64,000 nt of DNA. Source: Methylotenera sp. Lineage in GTDB: Bacteria > Pseudomonadota > Gammaproteobacteria > Burkholderiales > Methylophilaceae. The translations under genes and the position numbers were made by a program. Where the stretch lies: contig NZ_JAUXOY010000014.1 of the NCBI RefSeq assembly GCF_030684185.1, positions 94,001 to 158,000 on the forward strand, given 5' to 3'. Under the pieces are notes generated by a model. That model worked only from the letters and a program-made list of their open reading frames with translations. It was not told where the DNA came from and did not search any database. Each line of letters begins with the position of its first letter. Within the stretch, counting starts at the first letter, position 1. Below, piece after piece: positions 51,088 to 53,213 of the stretch.

Positions 51088-51813
51088 ATGGCAGGTCATA
51101 GTAAATGGGCAAATATTCAACATCGCAAAGGTCGTCAAGACGCCAAGCGCGGCAAAATCTTCACAAAAATCATTAAAGAAATCACCGTAGCGGCGCGCTT
51201 AAGTGGTGGCGACGTTACCATGAACCCGCGTCTACGCGCTGCGGTGGCAGAGGCTAAAGAAGAGAACATGCCCGCTGACAATATAACGCGTGCCATTAAA
51301 AAAGGTACGGGCGAATTAGAGGGCGTGAACTACGAGGAAATTCGCTATGAAGGTTACGGTATTAACGGCGCGGCGATTATCATTGATTGTCTTACCGACA
51401 ACAAGCAGCGTGCGGTGGCTGATGTGCGCCACGCGCTGACTAAGTTTGGTGGTAATTTAGGTACCGATGGCTCGGTCGCCTTTATGTTCAAACATTGCGG
51501 CAGCTTAGTATATGAGCCAGGTACGAGCGAAGATAAAGTAATGGAAACCGCTTTGGAAGCAGGTGCTGAAGATATTGTGACAGACGAAGACGGCAGCATT
51601 GAAGTGATTACGCCGCCAAATGATTTTATGGCCGTAAAAGAAGCGATGGAAGCCGCAGGCCTTAAAGCCGTGATGGCAGAAGTCACTATGAAGCCGATGA
51701 ACGAAGTGGAGTTTACCGGCGATGATGCATTGAAAATGCAAAAAATATTAGATGCACTGGACGATTTGGACGATGTGCAGGATGTTTATACCACTGCAGT
51801 GATAGAGGGTTAG
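51088..51813 (+). CDS. yebC: YebC/PmpR-family transcriptional regulator
   Basis: [27 protein letters not shown]. Confidence 0.97.
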
Positions 51814-51815
51814 TA

Positions 51816-52646
51816 ATGGTCAACTTGCCTAAATGTTCAATGGCTGGCTGTGACAGTCCAGTTTCAAAAGCTGGTTATACGCTTTGCTATAAGCATTGGT
51901 TAGTGGAAAACAAAAGTAAGGTTACAAAACAAGTTAAGGAAGTTGAGCTTGATGAACCAAAGCAAAACAACTTTTTAACTTCTACCGCACTAGGTGAAAA
52001 ACTTGGCATTAACAGTAGAAAATTAAATCAAGTTTTATCAGAGTTAGGCTGGATTGAACGGTCAAAAAAAGGCTGGATACCAACTAGCCAAGGTAAAAAA
52101 CTTCATGCAGAAAGCCGTGAAAGTCGGCAGTCTGGTGTCCCTTTCGTTATGTGGCCTGAAGCAATCATTACCTCAAAAATCTTAACCAATACAATTCAAG
52201 AACTGTTAGGAAATAAAGGCACAGAAACAAAAGCCAAGCTGGAGGATGTCCCTACTGAAACGAAAGACGAGAAGCAGGTAGGTTATAGAGATAAGTTAGA
52301 TAAATTCAAACCGACTCATAGGGCAATGGATGGTCATTGGGTTCGCTCTAAGGCAGAGGGCTTAATTGATAATTGGTTATATATGTCAGGTATTGTTCAC
52401 GCATATGAACGTTTGTTACCTGTTGAAGAAGAGCTTTATTGCGATTTTTATGTTCCAGCAGGTAAAGTTTATATCGAATTTTGGGGCTTAGAAAATGACC
52501 CAAAATACAGAGAGCGCAAAGAAAAAAAGAAACAAATATACAAAAAATATGGGTTCAATTTGATTGAGTTAAATGATGAACATATCCAAAATCTAGATGA
52601 TTATTTGCCGAAAATGTTACTCAAATTTAATGTGATTGTGGACTAA
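51816..52646 (+). CDS. Putative nuclease: Zn-finger, wHTH and PD-(D/E)XK-like C-terminal domain
   Basis: CSMAGCDSPVSKAGYTLCYKHW; TSTALGEKLGINSRKLNQVLSELGWIERSKKGW; VRSKAEGLIDNWLYMSGIVHAYERLLPVEEELYCDFYVPAGKVYIEFWGLEND...K...LIELND. Confidence 0.7.
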   Translation: MVNLPKCSMAGCDSPVSKAGYTLCYKHWLVENKSKVTKQVKEVELDEPKQNNFLTSTALGEKLGINSRKLNQVLSELGWIERSKKGWIPTSQGKKLHAESRESRQSGVPFVMWPEAIITSKILTNTIQELLGNKGTETKAKLEDVPTETKDEKQVGYRDKLDKFKPTHRAMDGHWVRSKAEGLIDNWLYMSGIVHAYERLLPVEEELYCDFYVPAGKVYIEFWGLENDPKYRERKEKKKQIYKKYGFNLIELNDEHIQNLDDYLPKMLLKFNVIVD

Positions 52647-52649
52647 GAG

Positions 52650-53213
52650 TTGGGGTTTATTCGTATCCTCGGTATAGACCCTGGCCTGCGCATCACAGGC
52701 TTTGGGGTAATCGAAAAAATAGGTGAAAAGATCACTTATATTTCGAGTGGTACGATTAAAACAGCGAGTGGTAAAAAAAACAAAATTGAGGGTGAAGATG
52801 ATAGAGAGGAACTGCCAGCACGTTTGAAAATTATCCTGGATGGTTTGTTTGAAGTCATTGATACTTATCAGCCTAACCAAGTGGCGATTGAAAAGGTATT
52901 TGTTAATGTGAACCCGCAATCCACCTTGTTGTTAGGTCAGGCGCGTGGCGCTGCAATCAGTGCTGCAGTGATGCGTAATTTAATCGTGGCCGAATATACC
53001 GCCTTACAAGTCAAGCAGGCCGTCGTTGGCAATGGTCATGCACAAAAAGAACAGGTGCAGGAAATGGTCAAACGCTTACTTAATTTGCCTGCGACGCCTA
53101 AACCAGACTCTGCGGACGCATTAGCTTGTGCAATCTGTCATGCGCATGGTGGGCAGGGCTTGGGTAGGTTGGCTACAGCTGGTTATCGAGTTCGTGGCGG
53201 GCGGCTGGTTTGA
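52650..53213 (+). CDS. ruvC: Holliday junction resolvase RuvC (TTG start)
   Basis: [41 protein letters not shown]. Confidence 0.97.

What the first reader, a model, noticed from the sequence alone, without database searches (positions are those of the whole stretch)
51816..52646. Zn-finger/wHTH/nuclease-like protein inserted between yebC and ruvC
The composite protein has an N-terminal CxxxxC...CxxH finger, a KilA-C-like wHTH (TSTALGEKLGINSRKLNQVLSELGW) and a C-terminal segment with E..D..ExW and distal K residues (VRSKAEGLIDNWL...YCDFYVPAGKVYIEFWG...EKKKQIYKKYGFNLIEL), typical of PD-(D/E)XK nucleases. It sits 2 bp after yebC and just before ruvC, so it may be co-expressed with Holliday-junction genes. 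It could be a branch- or lesion-directed nuclease or a defence enzyme.
Basis: inference. Interest (0 to 1): 0.72.

Follow-up and report, generated by a model that had tools for sequence, protein, structure and literature searches.

The report
Lone DNA-cutting enzyme behind yebC
The gene between yebC and ruvC encodes a small protein with two likely DNA-gripping parts and an intact DNA-cutting part; it belongs to a catalogued but untested candidate phage-defence family, here in an unusual form with a zinc finger and at a conserved place in the chromosome.

Summary
Window 51816-52646 encodes a 276-aa protein with a C-x4-C-x11-C-x2-H finger, one winged helix weakly like the phage KilA-C/ANT domain, and a C-terminal PD-(D/E)XK nuclease domain. 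The domain model is confident (pLDDT 89.5), its best PDB matches are mostly PD-(D/E)XK nucleases, and E181, D210, E221 and K238 are intact. Orthologues are under strong purifying selection (nuclease pN/pS 0.05).

It is not an orphan. It matches the PADLOC candidate defence family PDC-S69 (E=5e-77), whose usual members have two winged helices instead of finger plus one.

In Betaproteobacteria the gene is patchy (8 of 52 genomes in the genus), but in all 13 carriers found it directly follows yebC. Its link to ruvC is looser (10 of 12). Outside Betaproteobacteria no examined copy sits at ruvC; several sit beside restriction genes or on plasmids. It is probably a self-contained DNA-targeting nuclease, defence more likely than Holliday-junction work.

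Unexpectedly, the Vibrio branch (89 of 118 genomes) has lost the active site: E221 is Q or K in all copies examined, so the defence-candidate profile includes natural pseudonucleases. No activity has been shown for any member.

The parts
51816..52646 (+). gene X: 276-aa finger + wHTH + PD-(D/E)XK protein (PDC-S69-related)
   Evidence: ORF; PADLOC PDC-S69 E=5e-77; orthologues under purifying selection
51834..51896 (+). finger C7-x4-C12-x11-C24-x2-H27
   Evidence: sequence; C, C, C, H kept in Methylotenera, Azonexus, G213, Chloroflexi and Nostoc copies. Zinc binding inferred
51975..52211 (+). single winged-helix domain, residues 54-132 (corresponds to the second wHTH of PDC-S69)
   Evidence: Pfam ANT sub-threshold; PADLOC profile alignment starts at position 74; model helices and strands
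52212..52295 (+). disordered linker, residues 133-160
   Evidence: pLDDT below 50; pN/pS 0.39
52296..52643 (+). PD-(D/E)XK nuclease domain, residues 161-276
   Evidence: AlphaFold2 model pLDDT 89.5, pTM 0.84; Foldseek best matches
52356..52358 (+). E181, first-helix active-site glutamate
   Evidence: invariant in 39 aligned members
52443..52445 (+). D210, metal-binding aspartate
   Evidence: invariant in 39 aligned members
52476..52478 (+). E221, second acidic residue
   Evidence: E in 29 of 39; Q or K in the 10 Vibrio members
52527..52529 (+). K238, displaced catalytic lysine (inferred)
   Evidence: kept outside Vibrio and aligned with a lysine in Helicase-IV-like proteins
51088..51813 (+). 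yebC, conserved upstream neighbour
   Evidence: directly upstream of X in all 13 betaproteobacterial carriers
52650..53213 (+). ruvC, usual downstream neighbour
   Evidence: directly downstream in 10 of 12 assessable carriers

Best explanation
X is a single-gene, DNA-targeting nuclease related to the PDC-S69 candidate defence family. The wHTH and, in this branch, the zinc finger bind DNA (inferred) and bring a PD-(D/E)XK domain onto it. That domain cuts DNA with E181/D210/E221/K238 and a divalent metal (fold and residues shown by model and alignment; activity not shown). Its most likely job is to cut foreign or aberrant DNA as a stand-alone restriction-type defence. In this genome it is expected to be co-transcribed with yebC and ruvC (inferred from 2-3 bp spacing). 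The position behind yebC is a residence site inherited or exchanged among Betaproteobacteria rather than a functional tie to Holliday-junction resolution.
For: PDC-S69 profile E=5e-77; all eight relatives from other genomes that were scanned match it too. Nuclease domain model pLDDT 89.5, pTM 0.84. Its best PDB matches are mostly PD-(D/E)XK-type nucleases: I-Bth0305I, NGO0050, PvuRts1I, AbaSI, TnsA, R2. E181/D210/E221/K238 are kept in all members outside Vibrio, and the set recurs in the nuclease segment inserted in Helicase-IV-like proteins. Patchy distribution: 8 of 52 in the genus, with 21 of 30 inspected sites simply empty. Copies lie on a conjugative and on a mobilizable plasmid, beside HsdS/HsdM-like genes (L019, L143) and beside a Mrr-like protein (L021). 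Nuclease pN/pS 0.05.
Against: No anti-phage activity is shown, and no paper naming PDC-S69 was found in the library. Many relatives sit alone among housekeeping genes rather than in defence islands. In Vibrio the family is near-core and its active site is lost, which is odd for a pure defence nuclease. There is no methylase beside X in the window. Foldseek E-values are modest (best 3.3e-3).
Confidence: 0.48

Rival explanations
1. X is a chromosomal repair or recombination nuclease that acts on branched or damaged DNA, with its place beside yebC-ruvC reflecting shared regulation or function with RuvABC.
For: Directly followed by ruvC in 10 of 12 assessable betaproteobacterial carriers, with tight spacing. 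The domain's distant relatives are built into Helicase-IV-like proteins. One relative lies next to a uvrA-like gene (L142) and one near umuD (L145).
Against: Most members of the genus lack it with no sign of a substitute at the site. The ruvC link is broken in L016 and L017 while the yebC link is kept. No examined relative outside Betaproteobacteria is near ruv genes.
Confidence: 0.22
2. X is mainly a DNA-binding regulator or nucleoid protein whose nuclease fold serves binding, with cutting secondary or absent.
For: The Vibrio branch kept the fold and core residues but lost E221 and K238, and is near-core, so the fold can be useful without cutting. It has wHTH and finger.
Against: The window protein and all aligned members outside Vibrio keep the complete catalytic set, and the nuclease domain is its most constrained part.
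Confidence: 0.13
3. X cuts RNA or acts as a toxin-like nuclease that stops the cell on infection.
For: Single-gene defence candidates often act by abortive infection (general knowledge). YebC, the constant neighbour, is a translation-related protein (general knowledge).
Against: The model matches are to DNA endonucleases, and wHTH plus finger fit DNA binding.
Confidence: 0.1
4. X is a neutral or selfish passenger at a permissive site.
For: Patchy presence; other genes also occupy the same site.
Against: pN/pS of 0.05 in the nuclease domain between orthologues with near-saturated synonymous sites.
Confidence: 0.04

Closest known systems
PADLOC PDC-S69 (PDLC05067), candidate single-gene phage defence
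   Same: The single wHTH and the PD-(D/E)XK domain (residues 48-273) align with profile positions 74-286 of 289, E=5e-77
   Different: The first wHTH is replaced by a C-C-C-H finger; it sits behind yebC; the profile scores a Vibrio protein with a degraded active site highest among those scanned here (442 bits), whereas the window protein keeps the active site
PDC-S68 and HEAT_CxxC_PDDEXK (PADLOC)
   Same: Related C-terminal nuclease domain (E=7e-14 and 5e-13)
   Different: Different and, for PDC-S68, much longer N-terminal parts
Helicase-IV-like UvrD proteins with an inserted PD-(D/E)XK segment (L008, L010, plasmid MEALZ_p)
   Same: Nuclease segment about 30-34% identical, with E, D, E and the helix lysine in register
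   Different: X has no helicase; the helicases have no finger + wHTH half
I-Bth0305I catalytic domain (3r3p) and NGO0050 (3hrl)
   Same: Best matches of the nuclease model among compact domains (Foldseek probability 0.99-1.00, TMt 0.63-0.68)
   Different: 17-21% sequence identity; no intron or homing context; X has wHTH and finger
Phage anti-repressor KilA-C/ANT domain
   Same: Helix-turn-helix of residues 54-93
   Different: Below the Pfam cut-off; X is not phage-borne; fused to a nuclease

Membership tests
PDC-S69 | significant match to PADLOC profile PDLC05067 | tested here: met
   E=5.2e-77, 257 bits
PDC-S69 | two tandem N-terminal wHTH domains as in the full-length profile | tested here: not met
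   profile positions 1-73 are not matched; a finger takes that place. Hence filed as a variant, not a canonical member
PDC-S69 | anti-phage activity | not testable with these tools
   PADLOC lists it only as a candidate; no paper found that names it
PD-(D/E)XK nuclease superfamily | core helix-strands-helix-strand fold | tested here: met
   model with H179-190, E196-200, E208-213, E218-222, H229-245, E248-252; domain pLDDT 89.5; Foldseek top hits mostly PD-(D/E)XK, E 3e-3 at best
PD-(D/E)XK nuclease superfamily | acidic pair plus catalytic lysine | tested here: met
   D210, E221, K238 (lysine displaced to the next helix) and E181 conserved
PD-(D/E)XK nuclease superfamily | metal-dependent cleavage | not testable with these tools
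   needs an assay
KilA-C/ANT domain | Pfam gathering score | tested here: inconclusive
   20.7 bits against 25.3; a two-wHTH plasmid relative reaches 37.4
Holliday-junction processing set (ruv) | constant linkage to ruvC | tested here: not met
   10 of 12 assessable in Betaproteobacteria, none of the examined loci elsewhere

The most novel reading that the evidence does not exclude
PDC-S69 is not simply a defence nuclease but a conserved DNA-structure or DNA-modification sensor with an optional cutting function: active nuclease versions are sporadic and defence-like, while Vibrio domesticated a catalytically dead version as a near-core chromosomal protein. The yebC-linked zinc-finger form would be a third, operon-coupled variant.
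Probability: 0.25. Interest if true: 0.65.

Novelty: new variant of a known kind. Interest (0 to 1): 0.42.

Why it matters
It gives a small, testable single-gene candidate with an intact active site from a family known so far only as a database candidate. It also shows that the family contains natural members with a degraded active site (Vibrio), so a profile hit alone does not imply a nuclease. The active and degraded branches together offer a built-in test of whether cutting is needed for its function.

Tried and rejected
Phage or prophage origin: no phage record matched X, and the nuclease domain alone gave only one weak match, to an unannotated 4-kb record. Solved relatives by sequence: none convincing; the two phmmer hits were ISG15 chance matches and the profile search gave none. 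NCBIfam: no match for X and only sub-threshold chance matches for relatives. Promoter or terminator inside the yebC-X-ruvC stretch: nothing on the + strand, and counts no higher than in shuffles. Separate recent origin of the X copy in L018 (61% identical while the flanking yebC and ruvC are 90-94%): the tree pairs it with G213, but holding it with the other Methylotenera copies is not rejected (p-AU 0.126). The PHROG 'HNH endonuclease' label is rejected: fold and residues are PD-(D/E)XK. A literature search for a defining paper found none that names PDC-S69.

Full report
OBSERVATION. The ORF is exactly where stated: 51816-52646, + strand, 276 aa. The yebC stop ends at 51813, leaving 2 bp; the listed ruvC ORF begins at 52650, 3 bp after the X stop. 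Six same-genus orthologues are 79-85% identical over the full length. Among the window copy and five of them pN/pS is 0.15 overall and 0.05 in the nuclease domain, with synonymous sites near saturation. The gene is real and under constraint.

ANATOMY. Residues 7-27 form a C-x4-C-x11-C-x2-H finger whose four ligand-type residues are kept in every member of this branch (Methylotenera, Azonexus, G213, a Chloroflexi genome, a Nostoc plasmid). Zinc binding is inferred. Residues 54-93 resemble the KilA-C/ANT helix-turn-helix, below Pfam's cut-off. Residues 133-160 are a disordered, weakly conserved linker. Residues 161-276 are the nuclease domain. AlphaFold2 gives the domain pLDDT 89.5 and pTM 0.84. 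In the full-length model the order is helix 179-190, strands 196-200, 208-213 and 218-222, helix 229-245, strand 248-252. E181, D210 and E221 fall on the first helix and on the second and third strands. K238 lies on the following helix, so the lysine is displaced from the canonical ExK place, which holds W223. Foldseek against the PDB lists I-Bth0305I, NGO0050, PvuRts1I, AbaSI, TnsA and R2 endonuclease among the best matches, with modest E-values (3e-3 to 1e-1).

RELATIVES. X matches PADLOC's PDC-S69 at E=5e-77, from profile position 74 on. The canonical architecture, seen in Vibrio, family f247 of the same phylum, Sulfurovum and a Methylotuvimicrobium plasmid, has two tandem wHTH domains and the same nuclease. 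The window branch has the finger in place of the first wHTH. In the tree the finger-bearing copies form one group at moderate support (93/94), and the betaproteobacterial copies, all yebC-linked, form one well-supported group (100/98) with Azonexus outermost. Two Thermoplasmatota genomes carry a zinc-ribbon-like N-terminus plus the same nuclease domain at 52-53% identity over that domain. A more distant copy of the domain is inserted in Helicase-IV-like UvrD proteins and keeps E, D, E and a helix lysine aligned with K238, while K235 is not kept. This is the main reason for choosing K238 as the catalytic lysine.

LOCATION. Eight of 52 genomes of the genus carry X. Thirteen betaproteobacterial carriers were found in all: eight in the genus search (one cut off by a contig end), L018, Azonexus hydrophilus (L017), and three genomes of family f25. 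In all 13 X lies directly behind yebC; where read, the start codon is a few bases after the yebC stop, and in G213 it overlaps it (ATGA). ruvC follows directly in 10 of 12 assessable cases. In L016 a reverse-strand gene, and in L017 a transporter-like gene, lies between X and ruvC. Of 30 inspected yebC-ruvC sites in the genus, 21 are empty, 6 hold X, 2 hold other genes (a GNAT-like gene in L060, a reverse-strand gene in L080) and 1 could not be judged because yebC is not on the stretch. The stable neighbour is therefore yebC, not ruvC. Outside Betaproteobacteria the gene sits elsewhere: beside mtl or glycogen-type genes in Vibrio, hisE or hemL in family f247, rpoA/uvrA in L142, HsdM/HsdS-like genes in L143 and L019, a Mrr-like protein in Paenibacillus L021, and plasmids in Methylotuvimicrobium and Nostoc. 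Gene names in these contexts are read from the sequence by eye unless the record is annotated.

THE VIBRIO BRANCH. 89 of 118 Vibrio genomes hold a PDC-S69 relative (a few of these only through weak or partial matches). In the ten members aligned first, E221 is Q in nine and K in one, and K238 is T, I or L. In 30 loci read afterwards E221 is Q in all; some loci are shared between the two sets. D210 and E181 stay. By the usual reading of PD-(D/E)XK enzymes these should not cut DNA. A Vibrio protein matches the PADLOC profile over its full length with the highest score of those scanned here (442 bits), so the candidate-defence profile includes this branch.

HOW IT PROBABLY WORKS. Shown: real gene, constraint, fold model, intact active-site residues, family match, yebC linkage. 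Inferred: DNA binding by finger and wHTH, metal-dependent DNA cleavage, co-expression with yebC/ruvC, and a role in removing foreign or aberrant DNA. I put 0.48 on a self-contained DNA-targeting defence nuclease, 0.22 on a repair role, 0.13 on a regulator with an idle nuclease fold, 0.10 on an RNA or toxin role, and 0.04 on a neutral passenger.

NOVELTY. A new variant (finger instead of first wHTH, yebC-linked) of a catalogued, untested candidate family. No paper naming PDC-S69 was found in the open-access library. The preprint that from my own knowledge is the likely origin of the PDC names (Payne et al. 2024, cited in PMC12255303) is not held, so I could not check what it says about this family.

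Noticed in passing
L125-L132, L147-L178 (Vibrio): PDC-S69 relatives are near-core in Vibrio (89 of 118 genomes) but have lost E221 (Q, once K) and, in those aligned, K238: a conserved pseudonuclease branch inside a candidate defence family.
   Followed up: partly
L018:5001-5831: Methylotenera D2_Bin_10 carries X only 61% identical to the window copy although its yebC is 94% and ruvC 90% identical; possible exchange of the gene at a fixed site.
   Followed up: partly
L060 984-1442; L080 and L081 about 331-1293 on the reverse strand (ruvC-forward orientation): Other genus members have unrelated genes at the yebC-ruvC junction: a GNAT acetyltransferase-like gene in L060, and a reverse-strand gene of about 320 aa in L080/L081 that also lies next to X in L016.
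   Followed up: no
L021:4767-5684: The Paenibacillus typhae copy is split into two ORFs (first wHTH; second wHTH + nuclease), next to a Mrr-like protein; frame break or real split.
   Followed up: no
L023:4821-5411, L024:4662-5324: Two Thermoplasmatota genomes carry the nuclease domain behind a zinc-ribbon-like N-terminus, beside a prefoldin-like gene in both; role unknown.
   Followed up: no
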